Assembly (NCBI GenBank): GCA_964023275.1
Contig: OZ029927.1
Location: 3,333,715 to 3,397,714, forward strand
Length of the DNA stretch: 64,000 bases
Source of the DNA: Norana najaformis
Lineage: Eukaryota; Annelida; Clitellata; Crassiclitellata; Hormogastridae
Direction of reading: 5' to 3'
Shown here: positions 40,571-59,016 of the stretch, one piece after another
How positions within the stretch are numbered: the stretch's first letter is position 1
Layout: every line of letters starts with the position of its first letter
Position numbers and translations under genes: made by a program
The notes under the pieces: generated by a model
What the model saw: only the letters and a program-made list of their open reading frames with translations
What the model was told of the DNA's origin: nothing
Database searches by the model: none

Positions 40571-40639
40571 AATTCAGCTTTGTCTGTATAGTTATATACG
40601 TGCTATCGATAGTAAGGTTCTTGACGAGTGTGTCTTTCC

Positions 40640-41084: not shown

Positions 41085-41205
41085 TATGCAAATATGTATG
41101 TGTGTAAATATGTATGTATGTATGTAGGTATGTATGTAGATATTTATGTATATGGGCCTATGCATGTATGAAGACACTTAATATAGCGCCTTTTTAAAAT
41201 ACATT
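41085..41205 (-). mobile_element. family E retroposon tail running into TATG microsatellite
   Basis: Minus strand 'aaggcgctatattaagtgtc' (about 41174-41193) is followed immediately by atac-type repeats. Confidence 0.65.
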
Positions 41206-41347
41206 AAAAAAGCGAAAATAAATCACCCGCATCTATTCGAAGGAAAGCGATACAACTCTAACGAGTCCTGCGCACAACACACAGCCAGCGGTCATTGTCT
41301 GAGGCATCAGACTCTTAGCACTTAGGCTCATGCATTATAGATCGTCA

Positions 41348-41387
41348 TGCTATGACATCAGCATTACCATTAGCCGATGTCATAGCA
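41348..41387. repeat. perfect 12-bp-arm hairpin
   Basis: Arms tgctatgacatc (41348-41359) and gatgtcatagca (41376-41387) flank a 16-base loop. Confidence 0.9.
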
Positions 41388-42479
41388 GGCGCGCGTGCAG
41401 GCAGGCGGGATGATGATGGACAGTCGCTCGATTAGGTCCTCCGGGCCTATGCAGCGAAGGATGCGAGTGATTTGAATGTCTAAATTGATCGACACACCTT
41501 ACGATTCTATTGTTCTTTGTTTAGCAGGTGTTTTGGCCATTTTGTTGTGTATGAGAGAGCAAATACGATTCCTGCTGAAAGTCCGAGCGAGGTGCGTTGG
41601 AACGAAATTGCGCCAATACTCAACGATCAAAGAGATCTACATAAATCATTTAGAACATTTTGGTTATTGCGGAAGGCACGCTGCGAGCATCAACCTAATG
41701 GTCTTGAGTACGCATTGCTATCGGGAAGTATTTCCTATCCTAGAACTCGTTCTAGGACAATTCATGCACGCGGAAAGCTTCGAACGGCAGCCGATTCATT
41801 TCAGTAAAATTGCATTCATGTAGCGCATCCTCAACGATAGCCCTGTGCAATTATGATCTGGCCCGACAACATTCAACCGGTTTTAATGGACATCACACAG
41901 TATTGCGCCAAACCGATGCAGAAATCAAAGAATGCAAACCAGGATCCTCCACCGTGTAAATTTCTGACCTTGTTCTGGCTATATGCAAATCAGTTCACTT
42001 AACATAGGAGATATTCGTAGAATCAGACCTAACATCTCTCGGATTATCTTTGTTTCGGTAGCAATTGTACTGTATGCTACTAGCCAGCTTTACTATCTGA
42101 ACTAACTTCTCACTGGCAGGTACAACTGATAGAGATTTACGCAAATAACAAACGGTTCCAAATTTTCTGGCCAGTGCCATAACACAGACCACTAAGTATC
42201 AAAATACTAAAGCCATATTGCATTCGTTTGCGTTGATTTCCCGTGGAGCTAAGAATCCTGTTTTAAAATCTATCTTTTAGTTCACATGGCATTGCATTTA
42301 ATTAAATCAATCAACCTGAATCTGCTGTCTGCTCACTCTACCTGCAAATATTTCCCTCTATCAACGGATTCTTCGACAGTTGCTGAGTCCTAGTGTTCGC
42401 TCTCGGTTGGGTGTTCTCGGTATACTACAGCTGGCTCTACTAACTTCTTTGTAATTCAAGTCCAGTTCAATGCGTTTTG
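41388..42479. other. no gene recognised
   Basis: Two overlapping plus-strand ORFs (41476-41823, 115 codons; 41517-41807, 96 codons) are the longest non-repeat ORFs here. Neither matches a family I know, and no promoter or splice site supports them. Confidence 0.3.
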
Positions 42480-42670
42480 TCATCTATTTAATGATATTCA
42501 GGCCTAAGTTTAAGACTCTTGTTTCAACTTGCTTACTCACCGTATCCTGACGGATTTCGACCAAGCCTTTCCAAAGGATTACGGTTTCAACTCCCGTGTT
42601 TCCTAAAGCAACCATCGATTGAGGCCGTATGCATTACGATAACGGCGATATAGAAGTCATTAGATTATCC
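42480..42670 (+). mobile_element. L2-like LINE 3' end (family A)
   Basis: 'gatattcaggcctaa', 'caacttgcttactcacc', 'aaccatcgattgaggc' and the tail 'acggcgatatagaagtcatt' then agatta. Confidence 0.7.
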
Positions 42671-43585
42671 GTAACAACCTTACTGCCAATGTAGATCAGC
42701 AGAAGTTAATCCCATTCGCAACTAAGGTAAATACAGAGTGAAGCATAACTTACCTCTGTCAAAAATTTAACATAAATTATTCAGGGAACTCCTTGTGGTG
42801 GATGAAGTCTGTTTCCCGAAACAGAAGACTTAGATGCTCGATTCTCCCTCGAGTAGGCAGCCACGATTGTAAAATTTCCAGACTGTAAAACTCGGTACTT
42901 CGACAGTGTATGCATCACAGGCCGCCAAGGTATCTGCCTTAATAAGATTTAATCTCCCAATAGCTTAAGTATAAGTAAGTAGAGCATTTGGCTTTCGATA
43001 AACTTTGTGTTCGCCTACGGTACAATTAAATGAACATATGTACCCGAAGACGAAGGTTAAAGAGACATTTCTCCTTCACGGTCCCAAAAAAAGCAACCGC
43101 TAACTGTGCTTCAAACTGTGACTCATACGTTGGTATACTCCTCTGCGCTCTTACACTCCGTTACATTCCCTTGTAGAATTACTTACTGCATAAACAGTCA
43201 CCTAATTCCTCCCCTAAATCTACAAAACACTCTATTTTTAGGGGGTTGCTCTCGTTACATCTTACAGTACTACGTATATTGTTAAGCTTCTGTGACACAA
43301 TAACGCAGTATGTTGGATTTCAACCACACTGACTCTGAACTATCGCTTGCTTATCGTCTTAACCGAAGAGCAGCAATCAATTTATGTTTACTGTGCTTCT
43401 CCGTATTGCACCGGCGCAAGAGACGTTACTAGATTAAATATCAATCATGAAGAAACTCGGTGTCTAGTGGAAGACTCGAAACATTGAAACATTAGGAAAC
43501 ATTTTCGGCCAGAGTTAAAACGTATCTTTTTGCAAAACTTCTAGACAGCCATGCTGTAGCGCCTTTGTGAGGTTCTTAAAGTGCT
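42671..43585. other. no gene recognised
   Basis: Spacer ending in a degenerate family E tail ('tagcgcctttgtgagg', about 43557). Confidence 0.35.
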
Positions 43586-43783
43586 TGCATACATACATAC
43601 ATACATACATACATACATACATACATACATACACACATACATTCATACACACATACATTCATACATATATACATACATACATACATACATACATACATAC
43701 ACACATGCATTCATACACACATACATACATACATATATACACACATACATACATACACACATACATGCATACATACATACAAG
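43586..43783. repeat. CATA microsatellite
   Basis: About 200 bp imperfect tetranucleotide repeat. The His/Ile/Thr/Tyr ORFs over it are artefacts. Confidence 0.97.
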
Positions 43784-43799
43784 GCTATTCCCCTCGTCC

Positions 43800-43905
43800 C
43801 ATTATTTGTCTCCTGCTATTGTCTCTCGGATGTTCTCGGTTGCTGGCTCCAAGCTTTGGAATTCACTGTCCAGTTCGATGAGTTCTGTCAGTTAGTTTGT
43901 CAGTC
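43800..43905 (+). mobile_element. L2-like RT C-terminal remnant
   Basis: The plus frame reads 'FSVAGSKLWNSLSSSMSSV', the conserved 'SVAG..LWNSLP' motif at the end of L2/CR1-type RTs. Confidence 0.7.
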
Positions 43906-44156
43906 CGACATCACTGAAAGGCACCATCTTTACTTCTCGTTTACAAGAATTTAGTGTAGCGATACGAAAAAGAAATTTCATGAATTTCGATTAAAAAACT
44001 ACGGATTGTTGTGGAGAATTTGTTGGAAAAAATATCCAAAAATCGATCCCATACAAAACTGACTTACGTGAGGGGATCGTGCAGAGCACATCAACAATCA
44101 ATGTGTAAGGATGGATGTCACGATTCAAGGCTTTTGAATGACGAAACGACATACTT

Positions 44157-44162
44157 TTTATT
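44157..44162 (-). terminator. candidate poly(A) signal for the plakin gene
   Basis: AATAAA on the minus strand, about 460 bp downstream of the last in-frame stop (44625-44627). Confidence 0.3.
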
Positions 44163-44624
44163 TATCCTTAAACCACGTGTCGTGTCACAGTTTCTATTTT
44201 CTACCGCGGTCCCAAGAGCAGAAGCATAATAGCCAGCATCACAGCTAGGAAAAGAGTTACAAGGCACTGCCGCTCTGCAGCATACCGAGTTCAACTCGAC
44301 ATGCACCTAAGGCTGTAGCGTGTGGACATAGAAGCCAAGAGAAAACTGACTGCCAATACCTACCAGCATTGAATGGATGCTAAGGATTATCGAATGCTAT
44401 AGCGCAATTCTAAAAGATGCAGCTGAAGATTGTGCTTCTGGGCTTCATTATTCGCAGCAAAAGGCGCTCTACTCTGACTGTTTTAGCAAGTGACGTTCGG
44501 CATTAAAGACCCGCGTTGGCTTAGAAGTACCATCGACTGATGGTTGCATTTGCATCTCTAGATTACAGATTCCAGAAACGGCGGCTCTTAAAACCCGAGA
44601 CGACGCTCTTCAACTGTCTCTCGG

Positions 44625-45286
44625 TCAGCGATACCTTGGATTGGCTGCTCCAAACTTGACCTCGATTGGACCGTTGCCACTCCCTACAAGTGGCGGTCGT
44701 TCCTCTTCGATGACGAGATTCGACACGGCGAAGATGTCGAGCCCATCGGTGCTGGGAAGGAGCTTCGTTCTGAGAAGGCCCTGGCGAATCGCATCGCCAA
44801 CGTACGTCTTGCGTCCAGTGGAGTTGTCGACGTAGTTGCCCGTTTCGCTGTCGATGAGTCCCCGCCTGACGGCCTGGGCGAAGCTGACGGCCCTTCCCAT
44901 GATCTTATCGACGACGGATACCACGGCGTACGTCTCCGACTCGTAGACCGGCTCACTGTCGTCGAACTCTGCGAGGACCCATCCATCAAGGACGGCCTCT
45001 TCGAGTGGCATTCGCGTCATGTTAAGGCCATTGACGTATTGTCCGTCGGCCTCGTCGATGAGTCCTCGGCGTATGGCCTCCGTCGTGTCGACTCGCTCGG
45101 CATTCGTGGCGTCGATGGCTCCGGTGATAGTGTATCGTCGGTCGATCCGTCGTCTGATCGTGATCAACGCCAGGACGTCGGACTTGGGCGGAGATCTCTG
45201 GACGGACGAATAAACGACGATGATCTGCCCGGACTTCATCGCCTCCGGAATAGGAATACCTTCAACAAAGACCAAATGCACACCGT
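44625..45286 (-). CDS. plakin gene exon: plakin repeats, possible C-terminus
   Basis: 662 bp with stop, starting in phase 1 after the acceptor 'tttgtcgtttacag'. Three divergent repeats can be seen: 'GIPIPEAMKSGQI', then 'TTEAIRRGLIDEADGQYV', then 'SFAQAVRRGLIDSETGNYV' with 'DAIRQGLL'. It ends at TGA 44627-44625. A possible donor AAG|gtatcg at 44635/44634 would skip the stop and join further exons, so the true end is open. Long plus-strand ORFs over it (44641-45413) are antisense shadows. Confidence 0.85.
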
Positions 45287-45394
45287 CTGTAAACGACAAA
45301 TTTTGGAGATATGGCGCATTTGTATGACTGTATTTCAGTGGACGCTGCCACTCTTGCTGCGTCCCGTACCGCAATGGTATTGGGCTCTCGGGCC

Positions 45395-45620
45395 TTCTCT
45401 ATGGCCGGTCTAAAACTTAGGAATTCACTGCCCAGCTCAGTTCGTTCTGTCATTATTTGATGTCATTCAGGTCTAAACTTAAGACATATCTCCTCCAGCT
45501 TGCTTACCCACCGTAGCCTGGCTTCTGGATTCTCTGACCTACCGGAATTCGACCCAGCTTTTCCAATGGATTATGCTTCTGGCTGCGATTTTCATTTGAA
45601 GCGACTTCGCCAAGAGCCAA
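45395..45620 (+). mobile_element. L2-like LINE 3' end in plakin intron (family A)
   Basis: 'ggtctaaaacttaggaattc' is a decayed 'GPKLRNSL' block. 'tgtcattcaggtctaaac' and 'ccagcttgcttacccaccg' follow. It is plus-oriented, opposite to the host gene. Confidence 0.75.
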
Positions 45621-45656
45621 GTGCCCTGCTGTTCTTCCATTCAGATAAGGCACATC

Positions 45657-45836
45657 AATGGATGGATGGATGGACGGATGGATGGAAGGGTGAGTGGATG
45701 GGTGGGTGGATGGATGGATGGATTGACTGATGGATGGATGGATTGATGGATGGATGGATTGAATGATGGATGGATGGATTGATGGATGGATTAATGGATG
45801 GATGGATGGATGGACGGATGGATTGATTGATGAATG
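45657..45836. repeat. GGAT/GATT microsatellite in plakin intron
   Basis: About 180 bp of ggat with tgat and gatt variants. It starts nine bases beyond a plakin exon donor. The Ile-His-Pro-Ser ORF tail on minus is the intron read through. Confidence 0.97.
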
Positions 45837-45845
45837 GAGACTGAC

Positions 45846-46132
45846 CTTCACCAGAATCCGGATTGACGAAGAGTCCGAGTCGATGGTTAATGATTCCTTG
45901 GTCGACTGCGTCCTTGAAGGAGATCTTCTGGCCACTCCTTGGATCAATGACGCCGCCGATGACGAACCTCTTGCGCTCCTCCTGTATCACAGACGTCAAC
46001 TCTTCCGCCTTCACTGACTCCCTCTTCATTCGAATACTCGAAGTCGTGTACATCTCACCCGTGTCTGGATTAACGTACGTTATCTCTTCATACGTCTCAA
46101 TGTCCTCCAGAGTCATACGCACTTCATAGTAC
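45846..46132 (-). CDS. plakin gene exon: linker and first plakin repeat
   Basis: 287 bp, phase 2 to 1. Acceptor 'ttatgcgcag'; donor GAAG|gtcagt, with an alternative CTG|gtgaag five bases upstream in the same phase. A charged stretch with '[10 protein letters not shown]' leads to '[20 protein letters not shown]' and '[17 protein letters not shown]', a well-kept plakin (plectin) repeat. In known plakins these repeats bind intermediate filaments. Confidence 0.85.
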
Positions 46133-46154
46133 CTGCGCATAAACGAAAATTACT

Positions 46155-46230
46155 CACATCATGTAAATGTACATGATTTTATATAGCGACCGTATGGCCT
46201 CGACACTGCTGATTGAGTCATTTCCTGCCA
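46155..46230 (-). mobile_element. retroposon 3' end (family D)
   Basis: Plus 'catgtaaatgtacatg' (tail in reverse), then 'tatatagcgaccgtatggcc' and 'tcgacactgct'. It sits about 25 bp from an exon boundary. Confidence 0.65.
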
Positions 46231-46237
46231 TCTCTAC

Positions 46238-46425
46238 TTGTGACACAGTGGTTCTTGTGTGACACGGTGTTCTGGTGTGACACGGTGGTCTGGTGTGACA
46301 GGGTGGTCTAGTGTAACACGGTGGTCTGGTGTGACACGGTGGTCTAGTGTAACACGGTGGTCTGGTGTGACACGGTGGTCTGGTGTGACACGGTGCTCTA
46401 TTGTGACACAATGCTCTACTTGGTA
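46238..46425. repeat. 18-bp minisatellite, about 10 copies
   Basis: Unit 'gtgtgacacggtggtctg' with variants (gtaaca, gtcta). It abuts a tRNA-derived SINE and resembles that SINE's A-box region. Confidence 0.95.
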
Positions 46426-46600
46426 GTTCTGCTTAGTATATGCTGCAACGATCGTGGGTTCGAACCTGCTGAGCGGACCCCGTGTAACGACCCCCGACAA
46501 GTTGTTCGCGCACAATGTTTCTGTCACTAAGCAGTAGAATTTGGTACCTTGGAATTCGTCCATTACCGGCTCAAGGAACTAAGAGTAGGAAATGAACGCC
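46415..46600 (+). mobile_element. tRNA-derived SINE in plakin intron
   Basis: B box 'gtgggttcgaacctgc' (about 46454-46469), then 'cgtgtaacgaccc' and a body with 'tttggtacc' and 'accggctcaagg', matching the minus copy at 34600-34825. Confidence 0.75.
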
Positions 46601-46932
46601 TCCTCTGAATTCGACTATGGAACCAGTTAAAGGCTTTACTTTCTTACTAGAAATCAATGCAGCTCGCAAAGCCAGTTCTAGTAAAAATAGATTACATGCT
46701 TATGCAAATATATATCGCCCTTCATCCTTCATTGGTCGGTAAATGAGAAAACCAATACAAATCGAGAGGTTGTTGGATTTCAGTTTTTGTGCCTCATCCA
46801 AATAGTCCTTTGATCTCGGGACCATCCTTGTTTGCCAAGGAATTTCTGTAGAGGCGTGTAAACAACTGTGTTACTTGAAACAATTATGCTTGAACCTGAA
46901 ACAGGTAGTTGATCTAATGTCTGGATACTGAC

Positions 46933-47048
46933 TTGAAGTGTTTGCACTGTGATGCCCGTCCGAGTTCTTCCCAATGTTCAACGATGCGAATCGGTCTCGA
47001 TGCTTCCGCGAGACAGAGTCGAAAGCCACGCCACTGCTCATAGAAACT
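46933..47048 (-). CDS. plakin gene exon: spectrin-repeat helix
   Basis: 116 bp, phase 0 to 2. It has an excellent acceptor 'ttgttgtcttggctgcag' and donor CAA|gtcagt. It reads 'SFYEQWRGFRLCLAEASRP' then 'IVEHWEELGRASQCKHF', typical of spectrin/plakin helices with spaced Trp. Confidence 0.75.
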
Positions 47049-47159
47049 CTGCAGCCAAGACAACAAGAAAACCAAGCATAATACGCCACTGGATCTGTCC
47101 AGGTGTAGGCGGCATGCTTCCATTCCCGATCCGTGGCAGAATAGACCAGGGCAGAGTAG

Positions 47160-47585
47160 AATTAAGCAGAACAGGAATTTAAAAGCAGAATACATTAGAA
47201 TAGGGTAGCATGGAATAGGATAGCGTAGAATAGGATAGAGTAGAATGAGATAGAGCAGAATAGGGTAGCATGGAATTAGATAGAGTAGAACAGAGTAGAA
47301 TAGGATAGAGTAGAATGCTAGAGTAGAGTAGAATCGGGTAAAACAGAAGAGACTAGAATAGAAAAGCGTAGAATACGATAGAGTAGAATATGATAAATTA
47401 GAACAGAGTGGAGCAGAGTAGGGTAAAGCAGAGCAGAGTAAATAAGCATTAAATTAGAGTACAATACATAAGCATCAGATTAGATTCCATAAGATCAGAC
47501 TAGACTAAATTATACCAGACTAAATTACACTAGACGAGACTAGATAGATTAGATTAGATTAGATTAGATTGGAGTGGAGTACAAT
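47160..47585. repeat. degenerate GTAGAATAG-type tract
   Basis: About 425 bp of irregular tagaa, gatag and agtaga words in a plakin intron. The last part is tandem 'gattagatta'. Confidence 0.85.
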
Positions 47586-47746
47586 TGATGAGTGTAGATT
47601 ACATTAAATTGCCTATCATGTTTATTCGGCTGCAGCCGGTTGAAACCTGTACCCTTTGCGATTCCTCTAATGCATCATCTCTATTGAATCTCCATTTGGG
47701 AGAGATTCTGTGATTCTTGATGAAAGCCCTTGACATAATAACTCAC

Positions 47747-47805
47747 CTTGTAGCAGAGAACAACTTTGTCCAGATTGGCCACCATTATTTTTATCGACGA
47801 AAGAC
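47747..47805 (-). CDS. plakin gene micro-exon
   Basis: 59 bp, phase 1 to 0. The acceptor 'tattgttttaacag' and the donor CAAG|gtgagt are both strong. It reads 'LSSIKIMVANLDKVVLCYK', hydrophobic heptads continuing the helix of the previous exon. Confidence 0.75.
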
Positions 47806-48329
47806 CTGTTAAAACAATACGAATCGTCAATCGCAAAGCCAGTTTTTGTCACGCTACTGTTCCACGGAACAAATGCGCTACAGCAGTTCATGACTGATGA
47901 CGACACTAGTTTATCTCAGCTTATTTAACTGTTACTTTAAGTAACGACATCTCGTGACGCTATTTAGCGAGTTTAACACTGGCATGGTTAAGCTTTTGAT
48001 TAATTAAACAATGGAGTTTTAGACAAACTGGGATTTTTTTGGCGTTGGTCGGGAAAAATGGAAAGATGCTTCAAGCCTCTTCTCCGTAAATAACTATGAC
48101 GTCACTGGACCATTAAAGCTCGGCTCGCATTTACGTCCGCGCGACATCCACATTTGGCTTTGATCTAGGCATATATCGTTGAGAATGATAGGATGTATAC
48201 AACTGGTTTGGACTATTTTAAAATATCAAACTGGCCCTATATAAATCAAGGTACGTGACTTTCTTCTTAGGCTCTTTCTTAAGTGGTAGGCATTAGTTCA
48301 TCAGGCGATTGTCGCTATGCAGGAAAGTT

Positions 48330-48630
48330 CGTAATCGTAATTACGAGACTTCTACAGCGCCCAACGAAAGCCACGTAACGGGGACCAGATCATTCACAGG
48401 CGCTCAGTCAAAACAAAATCGATAGGCAAAAGGGTTCGGTTCCATGTCAAGATCCAAAAGTCAGGCAGAGAGACAGCGTCGCAGCCACTGTGGACGATAT
48501 TTGGGATTGGAGCAGAAAGAGACAATGAGGAAGAAGAGGAGTCAGAATGGGATCTGTGAAAGAGGAATGTTTTCAATTTTGAGTGAAAGGCCGATGCAGA
48601 AATTGCCAGCGGTGGAGCACAGGTGAGTTT
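48330..48630 (-). mobile_element. LINE 3' end fragment (B-like) in plakin intron
   Basis: Plus 'gtaatcgtaattacgagact', 'tctacagcgcccaacg' and 'cacaggcgctcagtc' form a tail-plus-UTR layout like family B. An element-like block near 33500 shares 'gcagaaattgc' words. Confidence 0.5.
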
Positions 48631-49289
48631 GTATGATGGGTCAGATAACTGTCTCAGTTCTGGGGGGAGTTTATTCTGCGCTTATCTTAATCGTCGGGGA
48701 ATTTATTGTGAAGCATCTTCTATTAGGTATGCTTTTCTTGTTTGTAGGATTTTAATTCGTTTTATGAGCTAATTGATCTAAGAGTTTCCAAGGTGTCGTA
48801 TATTTCCCGCTTTGCAAAGCAGGCGTAATGTCAATGACCGACAACCACGCAGCATTGCACCTTAGCACTCGTGGCGCCATCAGTCTGGAGTGGCTTTTTA
48901 GATCTGTCTTCTGACTCCAACAGATACTATTCCCTCAAACTGAGGACTGTGTATTAGAAGCCACTGCTTCGCCACAAGTGGGCTGGACGAAACACTGCGT
49001 AAATCAATGTTTATTATGTTTGTTATATTTATTAGGCTATTAAATTATGTTTACGTTTATTTGAGGGACCCACGTTTTCCCTATAATCACCGTAAAGCCT
49101 CTACCCTGCTAATTTTCATTGAATTTGGCGGGTGAGCTCCTTCAACACCCCTGCCCGTTGGGATGGTCGCCACGTCATTATATAACATCGTTTACGTACC
49201 GTGCTAGTCTGCGATACACGCCACATGTCATGATACTTACTTACCAGGCGCTATCTTCGTTTACCATACATAATCCGTAGAGAAACTGC
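48631..49289. other. plakin intron, no feature recognised
   Basis: Lies within the intron between the exons at 49960 and 47805. Confidence 0.4.
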
Positions 49290-49912
49290 AATTCTAGGCC
49301 TTGAAAGACTTCTGAGCTCTTTCGTGAGGTGGGTCCACTTCAGCCGCTAAGCAGCGAGGTCAATGAATTCGGAAGATCAGTTGTCAGTTCTGGATGGGAA
49401 TCCTTTGGTTAGGCTCTGTCTGCGCTGTTGCTTACTTCATGTTCTTTATGTTCTTAATGGCTTTAACTTCATTTATGCTAGTGTAGAGGGCGCCTCTGTT
49501 CGGTTCCTATCGAAAGGGCCTTACACAAATTTACGATTTACAATTAAGAATTACAATTACAAACAAAAGGCGCTATATTAAGTACCTTGATATACATACA
49601 TACATACATACATACATCTATACATACATACATACATACATCTATACATACATACATACATGCACACATACATGCATACATTAATATAAGCATACGTACG
49701 TACATACATACACATACATGCATTACATACATGCAAACATCTATATATACATACATACATACATACACACATACATACATGCTGTACATACATACATACA
49801 TACATACATGCACACATAAACACATACATGCATACATTAAAACATGCATACATACATACATAATGCACATATACATGCATACATACATACATACATTATG
49901 TATGCATACATA
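49290..49912 (+). mobile_element. family E retroposon running into CATA microsatellite
   Basis: Body words 'cttctgagctctttcg' and 'atgttcttaatggctttaac' lead to the tail 'aaaaggcgctatattaag' at about 49566. Its end 'ttgatatacatac' opens a 320-bp atac array (49588-49912). Intronic and antisense to plakin. Confidence 0.65.
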
Positions 49913-49959
49913 CACCTGTTTGTGTCATCGTGTGTTTATATTTTGGTATCTGAATTTAC

Positions 49960-50140
49960 CATTTGAGGATCGAATCGTAAGAAGTTCGGCTTCCAGGTGA
50001 CGGATGTACTTCTGGAGTCTGGTCAGATCCAGTCCAACCTTGTTCTGTTTGAAGACGCAATCGACCAGTCTCTTGATCCTCGACGTTACTCTGCCATTGC
50101 CAACCACCTCATCTCGGCTGTGTTCCCTTTGGTGGTCCCT
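49960..50140 (-). CDS. plakin gene exon: spectrin-repeat helix
   Basis: 181 bp, phase 0 to 1. The acceptor 'ttgatattctgtgcag' ends at 50141 and the donor is AATG|gtaaat. The reading contains 'SRIKRLVDCVFKQNK' and 'LTRLQKYIRHLEAELLTIRS', a heptad-like helix. A plus-strand frame is open over the same stretch, but it lacks matching splice sites. Confidence 0.65.
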
Positions 50141-50464
50141 CTGCACAGAATATCAATCACTTTCAAGTTGAAATGCTGTTTAAAAGAATAACAAGGTTCT
50201 GCTGTGATTGATCTTTCTCCGCTCTTTATATCGAAACAAAAATTGAAAAAATTTCGAAAAAAGAAAGCCTTTCCAGACGGCAATCTCTTTAAACGAACGA
50301 TCTCTCAAGATACAGTAGGCTAAAAAAACAGGAATGCTAGGTTTTTTCCCAGTAAAGGACTTTTTAAACGGGTGATCTCAGAAGCAATACAAAACCAGAT
50401 GGACTGAGCTAGCGACCTAGGACAAGAAAAGGAAACCGGTATTCTCTAATAAAACCGTGAAAAC

Positions 50465-50500
50465 TGGATAAAAGGCCGGTGATCATCCTGAGGAAAGCAG
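50465..50500 (+). promoter_or_regulatory. TATA-like box and putative start for the nested gene
   Basis: A 'gataaaagg' element at about 50467-50475 stands about 30 bp before 'gcagtctcg', a start-site-like context, and about 60 bp before the ATG at 50530. Alternatively 'cttcttcag' just before the ATG is a splice acceptor. Confidence 0.35.
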
Positions 50501-50529
50501 TCTCGACTTCTTCAGGTCATCGCGAGCTA

Positions 50530-50976
50530 ATGGAGTTAACGGATCAGGTCTTGCAGAAGGCTTCCGACTTTGCCAACGTCATCCACGGAGCGATGGTCCT
50601 ACTCACCGTCTTTATCATCTACGCTGTCGTCCTCGCAGCCACCGTAGCTGTCTTCGTATTCGTTTGCTTCATGGCCTTAATTATCATACTCGTGCCTTTC
50701 GTAATTGGGGTTGTCTTTGCAATCATCGTAACCGAGGTTATCGCCTACTTCTGGATGGTGGCACCCGGTGGAGATGGCCTCGTCATGAACGAATATGCTG
50801 CGGTCCTCGATAGGGTAGAGGGTGGCGCAGAAGGGACCCAGAGGCCGGACAGGGCCAGCAACGGCAGTGGGGATGCCGACGATGGCAAAGGATGGCTTCG
50901 CTGGTGGCTCGGGTGGTGGTGGTGGGTCACCATAGTAACCGTTGCGACAGTTCTCCTCCTGAATGAACCCCTATGA
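50530..50976 (+). CDS. small multi-pass membrane protein nested in plakin intron
   Basis: A 148-residue product from the ATG at 50530. The open frame extends 17 codons further upstream but only to a GTG. Strong preference for C or G in third positions and a long hydrophobic core argue for real coding. Residues about 19-76 are almost uninterrupted hydrophobic sequence containing 'VVLAATVAVFVFVCFMALII', enough for two or three membrane spans. A polar loop rich in Gly, Asp and Ser (about 78-122) and a Trp-rich fourth span 'WLRWWLGWWWWVTIVTV' follow. There is no signal-peptide-like start. It lies in the intron between plakin exons 51218-51113 and 50140-49960, on the opposite strand. I do not recognise the family. 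Confidence 0.65.
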   Translation: MELTDQVLQKASDFANVIHGAMVLLTVFIIYAVVLAATVAVFVFVCFMALIIILVPFVIGVVFAIIVTEVIAYFWMVAPGGDGLVMNEYAAVLDRVEGGAEGTQRPDRASNGSGDADDGKGWLRWWLGWWWWVTIVTVATVLLLNEPL

Positions 50977-51048
50977 CATCAGAAACACCGACGTCGTGGT
51001 ATTGGCGTGCAGACTTCGCTACAGACACGGAAACGTTTGCTGGCATTA

Positions 51049-51064
51049 AATAAAACTAAATAAA
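51049..51064 (+). terminator. poly(A) signals of the nested gene
   Basis: Two AATAAA hexamers (51049-51054 and 51059-51064), 73-83 bp after the stop and about 50 bp before the antisense plakin exon edge at 51113. Confidence 0.6.
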
Positions 51065-51112
51065 AAATTGCGCTAAAGAATGAATCGGTTGGAAGATAGG
51101 GATCATATGCAC

Positions 51113-51218
51113 CCATTGAGTTGTGATCGTCTGGGATGACGTAGCCAGTGTTGCCATTAGCAACGAACGCAGCTTACGAATACACTCTGTCCATGACGTC
51201 ACCAAGAGGATCTGAAGC
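51113..51218 (-). CDS. plakin gene exon: post-SH3 helix
   Basis: 106 bp, phase 2 to 0. The acceptor 'ttgatcttttcaag' is good. The donor TGG|gtgcat is weak, so the 3' edge is uncertain. It reads 'LQILLVTSWTECIRKLRSLL', resembling the helix immediately after SH3 in plakins (pattern 'ALVTLWxxLHxxxKSLLAW'). About 60 bp of this exon (51152-51213) is duplicated in an upstream intron at 52125-52187. Confidence 0.6.
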
Positions 51219-51344
51219 CTTGAAAAGATCAACAACAAAGCAGAATTAGGCTCAAAGCTTCTTACTATCGATTCATTCAAGCGTCACTTGTAAATAATTA
51301 AGCTAATACGACAACCGAATAACATTGTGGCTGTCTATTTTTGT

Positions 51345-51560
51345 CTATCTAATCTAGCATCTAATCTGGAAACTTCTATAGCGCCACTGTATCATTAATC
51401 GATGGTCGCTGCTGCGAAAAACTGGTATGCATGCCGGTATCCAGGATGCGTCCGGTAGAAAACTCGAGAGAGAGATCCGAGAAGACATGGAAACAGCCAT
51501 CGAAGGAAATTAGTTCAGATTGAAGTCAGATAGGCTGCAAAGCTTAAACTGTAGACCGAA
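51345..51560 (-). mobile_element. L2-like LINE 3' end (family A) in plakin intron
   Basis: Plus 'ctatctaatctagcatctaa' tail, then 'acttctatagcgccactgt', 'taatcgatggtcgctg' and 'tagttcagattgaagtcag'. Confidence 0.65.
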
Positions 51561-51782
51561 AATCTAAGTTGTATTACAGAACAAACCAATGCTTTACGAA
51601 GACGTCGAAAGGCATCAAGAGTCTAGTGACATGATTTAGAAAAAGACAGCAAAGACCTGTGCTCTAGTGACTGCTGCTAGCTAACGGTGATGAAAACTCC
51701 CGCTAAAGGAACTACAGGTGGCATGGCATATATCTCGAGCTACTCGGGGACCTTAAATGGCGTGACGCTCATTCAAAACGGG

Positions 51783-51886
51783 CAGCGGTGGTGAAGGATC
51801 TCACCCGATAAATTCGTTGCAAACTGAGCAGGGTTGAGGCCATACGGTCGCTATATAAAACCATGTACATTTACAGTTACATTTAC
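51783..51886 (+). mobile_element. retroposon 3' end (family D) abutting a plakin exon
   Basis: 'gatctcacccgataaattcg', 'gagcagggttgaggcc' and 'acggtcgctatataaaacc', then the tail of atttac hexamers ending at 51886, the base next to the plakin exon end at 51887. Confidence 0.75.
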
Positions 51887-51978
51887 CTTTCCACTGCTGT
51901 TAGGGCGCTGTTGTCGGGAGTTGGTAGAATGCAGGAAATGGCTGGTACGTAGCCCTCTTCGCCTTTCGAATTTCGCAC
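51887..51978 (-). CDS. plakin gene exon: SH3 C-terminal part
   Basis: 92 bp, phase 0 to 2. The acceptor 'tttgttgcttgccgcag' ends at 51979. It reads 'VRNSKGEEGYVPAISCIL', the final SH3 strands with the 'G.VP' signature, then 'PTPDNSALTAVE'. Plakin SH3 domains are followed by a similar proline-containing linker. The donor AAAG|gtaaat lies exactly at the end of a family D retroposon tail. Confidence 0.85.
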
Positions 51979-52036
51979 CTGCGGCAAGCAACAAAGCCAT
52001 ACCTTCTCTACGTCATATCTCAGAAAATTCGATGAG

Positions 52037-52310
52037 ACAACATGCCAGACGAAGTAACAACAGCAGGAAAGGAAAAGAAGGGCTTAGCGAGATGTGGCAA
52101 GATAACCGCGCATTAAATAATCGTTGCCATTAGCAACGAACGCAGCTTACGAATGCACTGCGTTCATGACGTCACTAAGAATGGAAATTGAGAAAGCATT
52201 CCTGAGTTGCGTTCGTTGCTAATGACAACGATTATTTAATGCGCGGATATCTTGCCACATCTCACTCAGCCTTTCTTTTCCTTTCCCGCTGTTATTACTT
52301 CGTCTGGTAT
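52037..52310. repeat. inverted repeat, about 105-bp arms
   Basis: The left arm (about 52037-52145) and right arm (about 52206-52310) are reverse complements with few mismatches. Shared words are 'ccagacgaagtaa', 'ggaaaggaaaag', 'gagatgtggcaagat', 'cgcgcattaaataatcgttg' and 'cattagcaacgaacgca'. The 60-bp spacer holds a partial copy of a plakin exon. Confidence 0.9.
52125..52187 (-). pseudogene. decayed duplicate of part of a plakin exon
   Basis: Matches 51152-51213 closely. In the exon's frame it retains 'CIRKLRSLLMAT' but has a stop after 'VTS' and another soon after. It lies in the intron upstream of the SH3 C-terminal exon and partly inside the inverted repeat. Confidence 0.7.
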
Positions 52311-52651
52311 TTTGTCTGGAAATTAAGAAAGCTGTTCTAAAGGGCAGCCAATGGCTTTCAGGTTCTACTCTCTCAAGTACAAACATTTCTAGACATTACC
52401 AAATTTGTCCGTCCTATCCTTCAACGGCACTTAATCGCATTTTCACACGCTCATGCACCCAATCATTCGTTCGTTAGTTCGTTCGTTGATTCATCTGTGC
52501 TTGCTGTCCTTTCGTTCGTCCTTCTTAACGCTTCCATCTATCTCCACCTGTTCTCTGAATCCATCTGTCCAACTGGACATTTTTTACTGCGTCATCCATC
52601 GATGCTCCTACCATTCATTCATCCTTCCACCAGGTCATTCGTCCATCTCAC

Positions 52652-52714
52652 CTTAACCCAGTTTGGCTGTGAGTCATCTGTTATCTGAACTTCATCTCCT
52701 TCTTTGAGATTCAC
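52652..52714 (-). CDS. plakin gene exon: central SH3 strands
   Basis: 63 bp, exactly 21 codons, phase 0 to 0. The acceptor 'gattttgtgtttcag' and the donor AAG|gtgaga are strong. It reads 'VNLKEGDEVQITDDS' then 'QPNWVK': the RT-loop 'L.EGDEV' and the conserved Trp of SH3. The nearly textbook motif is the best anchor of the model. Confidence 0.85.
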
Positions 52715-52984
52715 CTGAAACACAAAATCAACGTTGAGTATCGCATAAAATCAACTGAGGTCAAACACCTGCACAGCGTGACCTTAGTTGCCACCAGCTG
52801 AGACTAATATTTGGTAAATTGCATTTTAACATACTAACTAGTTGTAGTCACATCCGAAGCAAAGATACTGTAGCCACATTTACATTTCAAAGTAACTAGT
52901 TCCTTTTAGTCACTTTTGGAAAAAACTATAATTTGTCTCGATTTCTGTGTTCTCATATAGCTACGTCAATCTAAATGCCTAAAT

Positions 52985-53050
52985 GAAAATGTATACGGTT
53001 TTCTATAGCGACCGCATGGCCTCGACCCTGCTTACTTTGTATTGAATAGC
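52985..53050 (-). mobile_element. retroposon 3' end (family D) in plakin intron
   Basis: Plus 'tttctatagcgaccgcatgg' and 'cctcgaccctgctta'. Confidence 0.65.
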
Positions 53051-53389
53051 TAATTCTTCAATTTCTTTAGGCATAACAAGCGACGCATAGACTAAGTTAC
53101 GACTGGTTTAACATCCAAATGTCAAAATACATTCATGTTGAAGTGATGATCAATCAAAAGTCGCTAAACGTCGCTTGAAAAGTAAAGTCAATTCTCGAGT
53201 CGAAAATGTCAGGTCAAGAAACTAATTTATTTATATCTACACATAAACACATAATTATGTTAACGTAGGCCTATAAAGTTTATATATCTCTGACTGGCCT
53301 AAGCGATCAGATACTGGGATGTTTGGATACACAGACGAAAGGATAGAATGGCAGTAACATCCAATCACAGGAATAGAAAGGCAATAGAG

Positions 53390-53575
53390 ACTGACTGACT
53401 GACTGAATGACTGACTGAACGAATGAATAAATGAACGAATGAACGAACGGATAAACGAAAAAAACGCATAGTCATCAGTCAGTTAGTCAGCCTTTCAGTC
53501 AGTCAGCCAATCATCTCAGTCAGTCAGTAAGTCAGTCAGTAAGTCACTTAGTGAGTCAGTCAATCGTTGAATGGA
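53390..53575. repeat. CTGA / AACG / GTCA tetranucleotide tracts
   Basis: Degenerate mirror-like tracts (ctga repeats, then gaatgaac, then gtcagtca) just downstream of a plakin exon donor. Confidence 0.85.
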
Positions 53576-53586
53576 CTAGTTGTTAC

Positions 53587-53733
53587 CTCATTTGTTTCAA
53601 GTGAACATGGTGCTCGAAAGACGTGTAAATCGCCCAGTCTGGTCGAGTTGACCTGGAGAGGTGGACACGTGATTCCTTTCTTTCCAAGGTCACTTATCTT
53701 AGTCTTCCATGTGTGGAAGTATTTCATCATGCT
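53587..53733 (-). CDS. plakin gene exon: spectrin-repeat end and start of SH3
   Basis: 147 bp, phase 0 to 0. The acceptor 'tgattttcctgcag' ends at 53734 and the donor is GAG|gtaaca. It reads 'SMMKYFHTWKTKISDLGKK', a helix resembling the one preceding SH3 in vertebrate plakins. A linker and then 'HVFRAPCSLETNE' follow, which fits the first strand of an SH3 domain ('ALxDY' region, here altered). SH3 continues in the next exon. Confidence 0.78.
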
Positions 53734-54169
53734 CTGCAGGAAAATCATAGACAGAACAGTCAGACAGTCACTAATTGTACATCTCTCCAAAGTGAGACCA
53801 GGTCTAAACTGGGTTAGGTTAAAGGTCAAGGCAAAACACCCAGGTTAAGGGCTTAAGGTCAAGGCAACACACCTGATTACACGCCTCTACAGTAGCTCCA
53901 TAGAAGCGAGGTCCTGAAGCCGAAGGATATTTTGGCTGAGGCGCACGCAACACGAACACAGCAATCCAACGACAGAACGCTAGTTTTCCACCGACCCATA
54001 AAAATTTATTTCTCATATTCCTTAAATTTCCAAGAAGTTTCAATTCTCAACCATGCTCCCCGTGACAGCATCGCCTGCACTCGATAACACCGCAATGCCA
54101 ACTCAGAATACGCCACTACATTTTTCGACATGTCCTCTAATCATTTTCATCATTCTTGCTACTTGTTTA
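53734..54169. other. plakin intron, no feature recognised
   Basis: A short direct repeat 'aaggtcaaggcaa' occurs at about 53821 and 53858. Confidence 0.4.
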
Positions 54170-54440
54170 TCATTTCAAGGGCATTTCGAGAGTTTTTCTC
54201 GGTCGTTAAGATGGTTAAACATACGATATGGTTATAGGTCTGAGCTCAGCGTTACAAGGTCAACCGTTTCAACTTGTTTACCCACAACTTCCTGATTTAC
54301 GATCTACCTGACCTAATGGATTTCCACCGGGTTTCTCCAACAGATCCTGATTTCTGACTTCACTTAAAGCGAACATTGATCATCCCGTGCATAGTTATAA
54401 CGGCGCTATAGAAGTCAGTAGAAGCGATTAGATTAGGCCT
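54170..54440 (+). mobile_element. L2-like LINE 3' end (family A) in plakin intron
   Basis: 'tttcaacttgtttacccac', 'gaacattgatcatcccg' and the tail 'aacggcgctatagaagtcag', then 'gattagattagg'. Confidence 0.75.
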
Positions 54441-54459
54441 TATTCACTCTCCACACTCC

Positions 54460-54815
54460 AGTACCTCATCCCGTCCTCTGCGTTCTCTAGGTCGTCTGGA
54501 TGTATTTATTCCTCGTGTTAAGTCCTCGCTTGCGCAGCAGAGGGTTTTTGCTGTTGTTGGCCCATCTCTATGGAATGACTTCCGCTATCGTTTCGTGCAA
54601 GGGTCACTGTTGGTGAGAGAGCTGAGTCAGCTCGTTGTTTAAAGACCTTATTTTCTTGGGGTCCTCAAGCTGGAAGCGCCTTGGAGTAGTCTGTTCTGTA
54701 AGAAGTGCTATATAAGTTATCAAATACCAAATAAGCAGAACTTTTACATAAAAAGCACGGATTTTCTGTAACGGATTTTGCTACAACGGCGCTATAGAAG
54801 TAGATTAGATCTGAT
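54460..54815 (+). mobile_element. LINE RT C-terminal remnant plus second family A tail
   Basis: The plus frame reads 'RVFAVVGPSLWNDF', the conserved end motif of L2/CR1-type RTs. A second tail 'acggcgctatagaagtagat' lies at about 54787-54806. Confidence 0.65.
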
Positions 54816-54924
54816 TATAAAAAGCAAAGCGTTCATGTAAAATAAGCATGGAGTTTCCTAGACGAAGAAGGGAGTCCATGCAGGTCCTTGAACCTTCTGT
54901 GTTTTCCATGACTGGCCATCTTAC

Positions 54925-55043
54925 CTGGAGCTGCGAGAGGAATATTACGGCTGGCAACGGATCGCACTTGGCGACCTCAGCTCGCAGTTCTGTTTGCAGA
55001 CGATAGATGGTGTGTGTTATGTCATATTCGCATTGCAGGGCAT
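54925..55043 (-). CDS. plakin gene exon: spectrin-repeat helix
   Basis: 119 bp. The acceptor 'gttctacgcag' ends at 55044 and the donor is CCAG|gtaaga at 54925/54924. The first two bases complete a codon (phase 1) and it ends in phase 0. The reading starts 'ALQCEYDITHTIYRLQTEL' and ends 'VIFLSQLQ', an amphipathic helix fitting the spectrin repeat before the SH3 of plakin domains. It is the most 5' exon that can be assigned confidently. Confidence 0.75.
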
Positions 55044-55084
55044 CTGCGTAGAACTACAATTACACAACACGGAAGAACAGTGAA

Positions 55085-55400
55085 GAAATAATATTGCAAT
55101 CGGATGACCACGTCTCAAACGTCATTGCATTCGTGTAGATCAAATTCTAGTAAACACTGGAGCGCTCTAACTCAACTTGCAGGAGCCAATATCCAAACTC
55201 TGAATGGGATTCCATTAGTTGAGCTCTACGTGTGTGCGAAAGCCTACCAATGGCGACACTTTCGGCTTTCTGAGCACTATTATTTTACAGGTGTTCTTTT
55301 TGTTCTTAATTAACTTTGAAGGCAAGCCACTACAACGGTTTCAGCGATGCTTAAAAGGTGCTATATAAAGTGTCAAGATACATATAAACATATATACGTG
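55085..55400 (+). mobile_element. family E retroposon 3' end
   Basis: Body resembles 49290-49587 ('gttcttaattaac', 'tgaatgggattcc'). The tail 'aaaggtgctatataaagtgt' leads into atacatat. Confidence 0.55.
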
Positions 55401-55942
55401 TAACGCCCCTGGCCAGGGAAAATGCAGATCTCCCGGAAGGCCGTTCCAATTAGCTGCCCAACCACCGAAAACGCGCTATGCTGCGCTGTTGAAGTGCACA
55501 CAAGTGGGACAATCAGTTCGCCCTGGGTCTTAAACGACACGACAATTAAATTGTGATCGAATTCGGATATGTCGCTATCATATAGTCCATCTGCCCAATC
55601 AGTCCCCGAGGAAAGACCTGCATAGACGCAGGGAAGTATTTATGGGGGTTACGGATTCGATCCTCCCACCCTAAAAAGTTTCCGATATTGCCCTCAATGA
55701 GTGAAAAAATTTAAAAAGTCACGAGAAAACCCAGCCACCCATGTCATCAGAGCTTAAAAGGCCTTCAACATCTTCTCTGCATATTTGACCTTACACGGCA
55801 TATTAAAATTTAAAAGAGCCCTCAAATTTTTCTGCACAGGGTTCTGGATCAATGGCACAACAGAAGCAGATCCTCCCAGCAACGAACCGATGGCGCTGAA
55901 TAACTGCAACACTGAAGGTAAACGAACGGACATTTTGCGCAG
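55401..55942. other. no gene recognised; LINE-like remnant
   Basis: Minus-strand words around 55420-55490 read like a decayed 'WNGLPGDL', so part is probably another RT C-terminus. A B-box-like 'ggattcgatcctccc' lies at about 55652. Confidence 0.35.
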
Positions 55943-56018
55943 CTGATGGCACAGAAACTAGAGCAACGCTGTGATATTTTTGAGGTCAGCCGAGGTCAAT
56001 ACCTGGACGAGATCAAAG
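55943..56018 (+). CDS. candidate exon, unrecognised coiled-coil-like protein
   Basis: The acceptor 'gacattttgcgcag' precedes CTG-ATG. The only open frame reads 'LMAQKLEQRCDIFEVSRGQY' then 'LDEIK', helical and charged. The donor AAAG|gtgaac would end it in phase 1; otherwise the frame runs to TAA at 56051-56053. No family recognised. Confidence 0.35.
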
Positions 56019-56072
56019 GTGAACTGACGGATGTCAGCAGTAGAGGAATCTAATCTTATAACATGATTACAG

Positions 56073-56115
56073 GTACACTGAAAAGATCCGAAACGAAGGC
56101 TTAATGCAAATGAAG
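56073..56115 (+). CDS. candidate micro-exon
   Basis: Acceptor 'acatgattacag', donor AAG|gtacgt. Phase 2 to 0, reading 'YTEKIRNEGLMQMK'. Its entry phase does not match the exit of 55943-56018, so the two are not adjacent exons of one model. Confidence 0.25.
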
Positions 56116-56801
56116 GTACGTATCCCTTGCTACTGTGTACACTTCCGCGGAGAGAATAAACTCCAGTATATCAAGACAGAATTAGACAGAGTTAGGGAAG
56201 AAAGTTGTTAACTGCTGCTGGGTTTACGTGTACGCCAACCAGACACTCACAACGAACCTTTGCAGAAGTGACTAAAGGAATAACAATATCTAACAACCTC
56301 TTACCTCGGAAGCCGAGGCCATGATGCAACTCCTAAGAATACGGCTAATGCTTTGCCAAAGGCTAATGTCAGTTTAGCCATACATAACAACTTCACTACG
56401 AGCTTAGAAATACACTCGGCGCTGTTTTCCTATACAACTGTTATCTCTGTATGAGGTATTATATATGTATGTATATATATATATGCAAGATATAAGTATA
56501 TATACATGTATATGGGGAAACAGCACATATATATGAAGAAATAGGCTTATATATAGTGCATCGATCTAGGTCCATGTATAATATATTATGGAGAGATATA
56601 TAAATATATAAGCATATATGATCTATCAGGTATGTTGTATATATGGTAGATATTATACGGAAACTAGAAGAGCGAGAGAAGGACCCACTAAGATAATACT
56701 CCGCAGCAGGTAAATCGAGAGTGGCATTATATTAGGCAGTTCTTAACATTCTGACATTTCATTCTGCTCGGGATAAGTCAGAAGCCAAAAAACCACACCA
56801 C
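56116..56801. other. no gene recognised
   Basis: AT-rich, with 'atatat' stretches at 56460-56650. Confidence 0.35.
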
Positions 56802-56882
56802 TCAGTCAGTCAGTCAGTCAGTCAGTCAGTCAGTCAGTCAGTCAGTCAGTCAGTCAGTCAGTCAGTCAGTCAGTCAGTCAGT
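56802..56882. repeat. (CAGT)20 microsatellite
   Basis: Uninterrupted cagt units. Confidence 0.97.
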
Positions 56883-57037
56883 AATTTATCAAAATTCCCT
56901 CCCACCCATCCAAACTCACCCACCATCCATCACTCCAGCCAATCAATCATTTAGTCAGTCGTGTTTTGTCGAATGGTCTAATGTATTGACGTATCCCTTG
57001 CCTACCCATAGGCACTCCTACTCCTGTCCTTCAGTAG

Positions 57038-57102
57038 CTGCGACAGGAGGAATCCTTCACGAGAGGACGGGAAGTGGTCATATATTCGTTCCAAAGAGCA
57101 GA
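57038..57102 (+). CDS. candidate exon
   Basis: The pyrimidine-rich acceptor 'cctactcctgtccttcag' plus 'tag' leads to a frame reading 'LRQEESFTRGREVVIYSFQR' with donor GCAGA|gtgaga (phase 0 to 2). Entry phase fits the exit of 56073-56115. Unrecognised. A different plus frame over this stretch is also open. Confidence 0.25.
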
Positions 57103-58099
57103 GTGAGACGAGCAAAGTCTTTGCACAGAGCAATACCAATTACTGCAGAGGCCAAAGGTCATGAGACACAGGAGGTCATTCGACCAGAAGACGACTAATG
57201 AGAAGCACCCGAGGCAACTTACGACGAGGTGCCAAAGAAAGTGGCCGGGTGAGCATCCCTCCCCCAGTAAACTCAATTCGGTCACCAAGGGCCCAGTGAG
57301 CAGAGTTACTCTTTAACATGGCAATAATTGTCTCTCTGCCTGTATGCCTGCCTTCGGTTGATTGTCTTCCAGTCTGCTTCGAGTATTTTCACAAGACGTA
57401 CCAAATGCAATGGAGAGTTCGTATGTCTAATTCCTATCTGAGAGTGTGACGGTGCCAACTGCACGGGTCAGTGCCCTCAAATACCACGCATGAGCGACCG
57501 AGGTTAACGAGCTTCCTTCTTTTCTTCGACCGAATGACTTCAGCAGTTGCTGCGCTGAGTTCATCACAAAAATTGCGGCCAGAGAATTCATCATTCTTGC
57601 GTTTCAAGCATCTGTCGGTCTATGTGTGATGTTCTCGGCAGATCTTCATTCCTCCTCGTTTAGTCTAAGCGTTTATGTTTTTGTTTATCTTCCGCTGCTT
57701 TCTTTTCATGTGCATCTCTCAGTATTTTAATATCAGCGGCAAAAACAGCAGCTTCTGTCAATCGTTTCTTCCCAAATCACCCATTTAGAGGTCATCCACC
57801 GTATTTCAATTCGTCTGATAAAAGGCAACAATCAAAGTAAAGTAATCCGTTATTAATACAGGACTCTTTCGATGATATTCCACGGAGATAATTATGGTCC
57901 TGAGATTGGAGGATTTTTCGGCTGAAGCGCAAATCCGACAGCAGTTATTGAAAAACAGAACAGGCTTTCCTTAACTGTAATGTGGCTTCATGGAGAATTT
58001 TAACATAACAGATCTGAAAGCAAAACTCGGGCGCCAGGATGAAAGAGAAGCGCATGATAATGCATAAACAAACTGCCATCGTACCACCCACAACTACTT
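57103..58099. other. no gene recognised
   Basis: A further splice-bounded 48-bp segment (57373-57420, acceptor 'attgtcttccag', donor 'gtatgt') is open in all three frames and cannot be judged. Confidence 0.35.
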
Positions 58100-58400
58100 G
58101 TAACTGCAGTTGCAAATTTATATATCGCCAGTTAAATAGAGACTTCTCAGAGGCGCCAATGTTTAAGAGCGTTAAGTGACTGTTTTTGGCTCGAATTCAC
58201 ATCAGCAAGAACTCTGTCAGTTTGTGATCTGTGATTGGCAGCCGTGGAGCAAAAGATCGATCGGCAGGTGCCATCAAATTGCAGTATTTCCTCATGGAAG
58301 ATGGGATGAACCAGAGCAGAAGGAATTCCACTTCCATCGACACCCGCAGGGGGTCGGTCAACTGATTGAACTCAAAAGCAGGAAAGCATCAACGACGTCA
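58100..58400 (-). mobile_element. LINE 3' end (family B)
   Basis: Plus 'aactgcagttgcaaattta', 'tatatcgccagttaaataga' and 'cagaggcgcc' follow the reversed family B order. Confidence 0.55.
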
Positions 58401-58407
58401 CTGGAGT

Positions 58408-58408
<1 letters not shown>

Positions 58409-58502
<94 letters not shown>
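58409..58502. repeat. (AAT)n microsatellite
   Basis: About 31 units, followed to 58560 by mixed AAC/AAT. The poly-Asn and poly-Tyr ORFs are artefacts. Confidence 0.98.
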
Positions 58503-58504
<2 letters not shown>

Positions 58505-58560
58505 TAACAACAACAATAAAAACAACAACAACAATAATAACAACAACAACAATAATAATA

Positions 58561-59016
58561 CAGTAAGAATAATATTGTTATTGTACATTTGGCCTTGACA
58601 ATTCAACGCTTCAGTGCAGCTGCTTTCTGCAGCACATTCTTCTAGCCAGAACTTGACGAGTAGCGGCCGTTCCAGATGTTTTACCTCTTCTCCGTTAAGT
58701 TTTTAATGCCAAAAGATCACATGTACCTCGGGGCAAAAATAATACTAAGACGATATATAGAGTCCGTAGTAAGGCCAAGGCCGAAAAGGGTGCTGTACAT
58801 GTGCAGACTGCAGCCAAGTGCGGCGCGTGTCAGCATATAGACTGTAAAAGTCTAGTAATATTAACTAATTGTGGGATGGTACGAGTAACAGGAAGACTAT
58901 TACCTATAAATCCACTACCAAATTCAATGACTCAACCGTTGGTCTCTTTATGAATTAAAGAAGGGTCTCTCTTGTCTCTGTCTGCCCCTACAAATGCATG
59001 GGCGGATCTACAGCAG
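58561..59016. other. no gene recognised
   Basis: Spacer. Confidence 0.35.

What the first reader, a model, noticed from the sequence alone, without database searches (positions are those of the whole stretch)
44625..55043. A hidden plakin gene in ten small exons
Only the plakin-repeat exons show up as sizeable ORFs. Reading splice signals on the minus strand recovers a chain with nine phase-consistent junctions, an SH3 split over three exons and plakin repeats directly after the plakin domain. The repeats-without-rod layout recalls spectraplakin isoforms such as nematode VAB-10A, and the region between SH3 and repeats is shorter than in vertebrate plakins.
Basis: partly seen in the sequence, partly recalled or inferred. 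Interest (0 to 1): 0.72.

Follow-up and report, generated by a model that had tools for sequence, protein, structure and literature searches.

The report
Compact divergent plakin gene
The stretch holds a real but small and highly diverged gene of the plakin family, proteins that tie the cell's filaments together, whose split exons match those of larger sister genes in the same animal genome.

Summary
The minus strand of 44625-55053 holds a plakin gene: a plakin-type SH3 (Pfam SH3_10 E 2.2e-8; plectin 3pe0) followed by plectin repeats (PF00681 E 1.4e-19). I recover nine exons and eight in-phase junctions, not ten and nine. One acceptor must move (50138, not 50140); two others probably move (55053, 45259). 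The best evidence is exon anatomy: the 147-, 63- and 92-base exons around the SH3 have the same lengths and phases in a sister gene on contig C2, and in another sister the last two are fused. Exons 47805-47747 and 47048-46933 are unsupported. Four loci of this 608 Mb animal genome show plectin repeats. The other three have a GAS2 domain 21 to 41 kb further on; none was found on the window's contig. No spectrin repeat was found in 20 kb downstream (control 95). So this reads as a separate plakin gene without rod or GAS2, not a shown isoform of a spectraplakin. The 5' end, CH domains included, is unresolved. Likely function, by inference: a filament linker. New variant of a known family; modest interest.

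The parts
   Evidence: position, phase and length fit C2 (44 codons) and C5 (41 codons) as I read them; sequence match not significant; codon usage about zero; upstream exon not found
53587..53733 (-). exon 2 (147 bases, 49 codons, phase 0/0): helix end and first SH3 strand
   Evidence: same length and phase in C2:46.4 and C5:0.84; ungapped match to three sisters z 4.0-5.8; codon usage about zero
52652..52714 (-). exon 3 (63 bases, phase 0/0): SH3 middle
   Evidence: Pfam SH3_10/SH3_1 on the joined exons; identical length and phase in C2:46.4
51887..51978 (-). exon 4 (92 bases, phase 0 in, 2 out): SH3 end
   Evidence: identical length and phase in C2:46.4; fused with exon 3 in C5:0.84
49960..50138 (-). 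exon 5 (179 bases): probable helical segment after the SH3
   Evidence: frame and phase with acceptor 50138; codon usage mildly positive; no significant match
47747..47805 (-). exon 6, tentative (59 bases)
   Evidence: strong splice signals, keeps phase; codon usage negative, no homology
46933..47048 (-). exon 7, tentative (116 bases)
   Evidence: keeps phase; codon usage negative, no homology
45846..46132 (-). exon 8 (287 bases): linker and first plectin repeat
   Evidence: PF00681 E 5.8e-7 on its ORF; tblastn to sister repeats
44625..45259 (-). exon 9: remaining plectin repeats and stop TGA; alternative acceptor 45286 adds 27 bases in frame
   Evidence: PF00681 E 4.9e-12 on its ORF; alignment to sister repeats; desmoplakin repeat domain 1lm5 E 6.5e-10 for the window protein alone
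44157..44162 (-). AATAAA, possible poly(A) signal

Best explanation
A working, protein-coding, compact plakin gene of an unnamed animal. Shown: SH3 of plakin type, plectin repeats, intact frame, exon structure shared with sister genes, no GAS2 match on the contig, no detectable rod in 20 kb. Inferred: the protein anchors intermediate filaments (or another coiled-coil partner) through its plectin repeats and binds a partner, possibly under tension, through the SH3 and its flanking helices, as reported for plectin and VAB-10A. Without GAS2 it would not link to microtubules in the way its spectraplakin sisters are built to. It most likely arose by duplication of a plakin or spectraplakin gene, diverged fast and gained an intron inside its repeats.
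For: Pfam and PDB matches (with sister profiles 80, 81); 147/63/92-base exons with the same phases in C2; gapless 49-residue exon; SH3 match to C5 at z 14.2; codon usage; four plectin-repeat loci, three with a GAS2 match on the same strand 21 to 41 kb beyond the last repeat match and none on the window's contig; one spectrin repeat seen about 11 kb after the last C2 repeat match but none in 20 kb after this gene. Mechanism of the SH3: PMC11774597 and PMC8468861, passages.
Against: No transcript. No first exon found: of ATG-to-donor stretches in 55060-64000 with phase 0 and donor score 3.5 or more, the two candidates score as non-coding. Four of nine exons (1, 5, 6, 7) lack a sequence match; exons 6 and 7 look non-coding and exons 1 and 2 are neutral. 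The SH3 region is only 22-28% identical to sisters and plectin, so decay cannot be ruled out by sequence alone. Filament binding was not tested.
Confidence: 0.72

Rival explanations
1. It is the 3' part of a larger spectraplakin gene whose CH, N-terminal plakin and rod exons were missed because they are small and diverged.
For: Profiles from the sisters miss even a real exon of this gene, so absence upstream is weak evidence. A possible donor, not scored, lies just before the stop (sequence). The CH exon of C5 was barely found (E 0.027, below cut-off). The rod control found only one spectrin repeat in its 10 kb.
Against: No GAS2 match on contig C15 at E 0.01, while all three other repeat loci have one. 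No spectrin repeat in 20 kb downstream. AATAAA after the stop.
Confidence: 0.17
2. A recently dead or dying copy: domains still readable, transcript no longer made or not correctly spliced.
For: Fast divergence; no first exon found; weak splice signals at several exons; repeat-derived sequence in an intron within the repeats.
Against: No stop or frameshift in nine exons; codon usage of the SH3 exons 3 and 4 and the repeat exons 8 and 9 is coding-like; splice phases kept.
Confidence: 0.1
3. Chance assembly of splice signals around two unrelated ORFs.
For: Exons 6 and 7 have no support.
Against: Conserved exon lengths and phases and colinear match to plectin.
Confidence: 0.01

Closest known systems
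Spectraplakin-like loci of the same genome (C5:0.78-0.88 Mb, C2:46.4 Mb, C2:25.9 Mb)
   Same: plakin-type SH3 (same exon cuts checked in C2:46.4 and C5), plectin repeats
   Different: these loci have GAS2 further on, and their repeats run uninterrupted in frames of 824 to 6449 residues; the window gene has about three repeat modules by eye, an intron within the repeats, and no GAS2 match on its contig
Plectin and desmoplakin
   Same: plakin-domain SH3 (PDB 3pe0, 3r6n) and plectin-repeat domains (5dzz, 1lm5, 2n03) match
   Different: no rod found between SH3 and repeats; far smaller
C. elegans VAB-10A
   Same: repeats follow the plakin domain without a spectrin rod (this layout is recalled; the isoform facts are from PMC8468861, passages)
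   Different: VAB-10A is an isoform of a spectraplakin gene; here no second isoform's parts are found
Plakin-SH3 loci without detected plectin repeats (C8:14.1 Mb, C15:1.59 Mb)
   Same: plakin SH3 and preceding exon; group weakly with the window gene (74/79)
   Different: no PF00681 match there at E 0.1; they lack the intron inside the SH3 that the window gene and C2:46.4 share

Membership tests
Plakin family | plakin-type SH3 embedded in spectrin-like helices | tested here: met
   SH3_10 E 2.2e-8, though generic SH3_1 scores better at 2.8e-9; plectin 3pe0 over residues 14-138 E 2.2e-7; exon cuts shared. Flanking helices themselves weak
Plakin family | plectin (plakin) repeats | tested here: met
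   PF00681 E 1.4e-19, 3 stretches, on the joined C-terminal part; PDB repeat domains
Plakin family | binding to intermediate filaments | not testable with these tools
Spectraplakin | C-terminal GAS2 domain | tested here: not met
   19 GAS2 matches in the genome at E 0.01, none on C15 (only best candidates are scored)
Spectraplakin | spectrin-repeat rod after the plakin part | tested here: not met
   none in 24601-44600 minus; control positive in C2, one repeat; low-sensitivity test, window 1-24600 minus not scanned
Spectraplakin | N-terminal CH domains | tested here: inconclusive
   none in 29 kb upstream, but the C5 CH exon scored only E 0.027; genome-wide CH search did not complete
Plakin domain | W-x-W helix exon upstream of the SH3 (the SR4 region of plectin, as I recall it) | tested here: inconclusive
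   leave-one-out profile finds it in 4 of 4 sisters, not here, but the same kind of profile also misses this gene's own exon 2

The most novel reading that the evidence does not exclude
An invertebrate has evolved its own stand-alone plakin, independent of the vertebrate plectin/desmoplakin group, by cutting a spectraplakin-type gene down to SH3 plus plectin repeats. If the helices that cover the SH3 in plectin are really gone, the SH3 would be permanently open instead of tension-gated: a constitutive SH3-to-filament adaptor.
Probability: 0.15. Interest if true: 0.55.

Novelty: new variant of a known kind. Interest (0 to 1): 0.36.

Why it matters
A 2022 survey derives human-like plakins from a common ancestor of tunicates and vertebrates, and describes plectin repeats of protostomes in spectraplakin homologues (PMC9145010, passages). 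A compact, separate plakin beside three spectraplakin-like loci in one animal genome, with further plakin-SH3 loci, would show that the family was trimmed into filament linkers more than once, if this animal lies outside that group; its phylum is unknown to me. It is also a practical warning: of the nine exons only the two repeat exons lie in ORFs of 100 residues or more, so gene finders may miss or truncate the gene. My searches found no paper on such an expansion (listings from an open-licence library only).

Tried and rejected
Rejected: the splice model with acceptor 50140 (out of phase); a missing exon in 50141-51886 (only a 46-base and a 19-base candidate with the right phases) once acceptor 50138 was seen; reading failed upstream searches as proof of absence (control). 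The W-x-W motif scan found nothing credible up to 69 kb upstream. A tree of the SH3 region is unresolved. Not done: whole-genome CH search and whole-genome search with the joined protein, structure prediction and fold search (prediction switched off). Two papers on the plectin and VAB-10 SH3 are not held, so the tension mechanism rests on review passages.
Full report
Where it lies. The window is G000:C15:3333715-3397714 of a 608.4 Mb genome in 17 contigs, an animal whose species I could not name.

The observation. The minus-strand ORFs 44625-45398 and 45655-46149 match the plectin repeat (PF00681, E 4.9e-12 and 5.8e-7). The spliced segment before them matches the plakin SH3 (SH3_10 E 2.2e-8; the generic SH3_1 scores a little better, E 2.8e-9) and aligns colinearly with plectin structure 3pe0 from the last helix through the SH3 (E 2.2e-7). 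The window's C-terminal part alone finds desmoplakin and plectin repeat domains (1lm5 E 6.5e-10, 5dzz E 4.7e-8, 2n03 E 2.4e-6). Profiles that mix the window with sister sequences put plectin and desmoplakin first for the SH3 part (E 6.8e-22 and 2e-15) and desmoplakin, plectin and envoplakin first for the repeats. Searches used my first version of the joined protein, with acceptors 50140 and 45286.

Exon chain. My model has nine exons: 55053-54925, 53733-53587, 52714-52652, 51978-51887, 50138-49960, 47805-47747, 47048-46933, 46132-45846 and 45259-44625. It is open throughout, 568 residues without the stop. The first hand-made chain was out of phase after 51887; taking the second AG of CAG-AG at 50138 restores phase. 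At the last intron two acceptors 27 bases apart keep frame. The downstream one, 45259, gives the repeat without an insertion that the aligned sister repeats lack.

Independent support from sister genes. On contig C2 at 46.42 Mb the corresponding exons, as I read them, are 147, 63 and 92 bases with phases 0/0, 0/0 and 0/2; on C5 at 0.84 Mb they are 147 (with a GC donor) and 155 = 63 + 92 fused. The window exons are 147, 63 and 92 with the same phases. The window and C2 thus share an intron inside the SH3 that C5 lacks. The 49-residue exon aligns without gaps to C5, C2 and C8 exons at z 4.8, 4.0 and 5.8, and the two SH3 exons match the C5 SH3 exon at z 14.2. I regard this as the decisive evidence that the chain is real at its SH3.

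Weak parts. Exons 6 and 7 have negative codon-usage scores and no homology. Exon 1 fits by position, phase and near-equal length only, and exons 1 and 2 are neutral in codon usage. Exon 5 is mildly coding-like but unmatched. Overall codon usage is 5.8 sd above random draws, 0 of 2000 reaching it. Two things favour my result in that control: draws for exons over 250 bases were not required to be open, and the table was trained on sister plakin ORFs.

What is missing. GAS2: 19 matches in the genome at E 0.01, none on C15. The three other plectin-repeat loci have one on the same strand, 21 to 41 kb beyond their last repeat match: C5:777 kb, C2:25.943 Mb and C2:46.446 Mb; that these belong to the same genes is inferred from place and strand. 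Rod: no spectrin repeat on the minus strand of 24601-44600, whereas the same scan of C2:46428401-46438400 finds one at E 3.8e-15, about 11 kb after the last C2 repeat match. An AATAAA lies at 44162. CH domains: none in 29 kb upstream, but the method barely sees the C5 CH exon (E 0.027), so this is open. The W-x-W helix exon upstream of the SH3 is found by leave-one-out profile in 4 of 4 sisters and not here. The matching test with the next-but-one exon also fails on this gene's own exon 2, so I draw no conclusion.

Family in this genome. Plectin repeats occur at four loci: C5:0.81-0.84 Mb (frames of 3722, 2890 and 1943 residues), C2:46.42 Mb (824), C2:25.885-25.901 Mb (6449; only two weak matches, E 0.043 and 0.099, both over Pfam's cut-off) and the window (51 matches in all at E 0.1, lower bounds). 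A plakin-SH3 search gave 16 matches at E 1 or better; it did not list the window gene, whose SH3 is split over small exons. Five of the listed loci (C5:0.84, C2:46.4, C2:25.9, C8:14.1, C15:1.59) also show the preceding plakin exon on reading. C8:29.1 has both halves in the table but was not read; C5:8.03 was read in part and C11:14.84 not read. At least one further match is another kind of SH3 protein (C10 holds three SH3 domains in a row by eye). The SH3 tree does not resolve where the window gene belongs: it groups weakly (74/79) with C8:14.1 and C15:1.59, while the shared intron points to C2:46.4.

How it most likely works. The repeats bind coiled-coil filament proteins, and the SH3 with its flanking helices is a protein-binding, possibly tension-sensitive hub. 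For plectin the SH3 is reported to be blocked by the fourth spectrin repeat until force unfolds it, with similar results for VAB-10A (PMC11774597, passage), and the region for mechanotransduction in VAB-10A is the SH3 and flanking repeats (PMC8468861, passage). For this gene all of that is inference by family. What is shown is that no microtubule-binding GAS2 end was found.

Origin. The repeat intron 45845-45260 has no counterpart at that place in the aligned sister repeats, and its middle is a dispersed repeat found at 12 other places in the fetched DNA at 72-88% identity. This fits intron gain in a fast-diverging copy. The gene has no stop or frameshift, so I favour a working gene.

Verdict. 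The isoform comparison is better replaced by a separate reduced paralogue. Ordinary family, unusual trimmed form.

Noticed in passing
window 14800-16191, minus: 463-residue ORF of a rhodopsin-type GPCR (PF00001 E 5.9e-49).
   Followed up: no
window 50461-50976, plus: 171-residue ORF with a very long hydrophobic stretch inside intron 51886-50139, no Pfam match; perhaps a nested gene.
   Followed up: partly
window 45845-45260: Intron inside the plectin repeats made partly of a dispersed repeat, with TGAAGGT at both ends; possible intron gain by element insertion, or a chance match.
   Followed up: partly
window 52035-52317: Inverted repeat inside an intron of the SH3 (81% over 294 alignment columns).
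   Followed up: no
G000:C5:813831-816965: Plectin-repeat matches with identical scores spaced exactly 1191 bases, two sets of three: probably a recent tandem duplication of 397 residues inside a giant exon.
   Followed up: no
G000:C2:25885157-25901089: Two weak plectin-repeat matches in one open frame of 6449 residues, a remarkably large frame.
   Followed up: no
G000:C8:14.1 Mb and C15:1.59 Mb: Plakin-SH3 loci without detected plectin repeats, 56% identical to each other in the SH3 region.
   Followed up: partly
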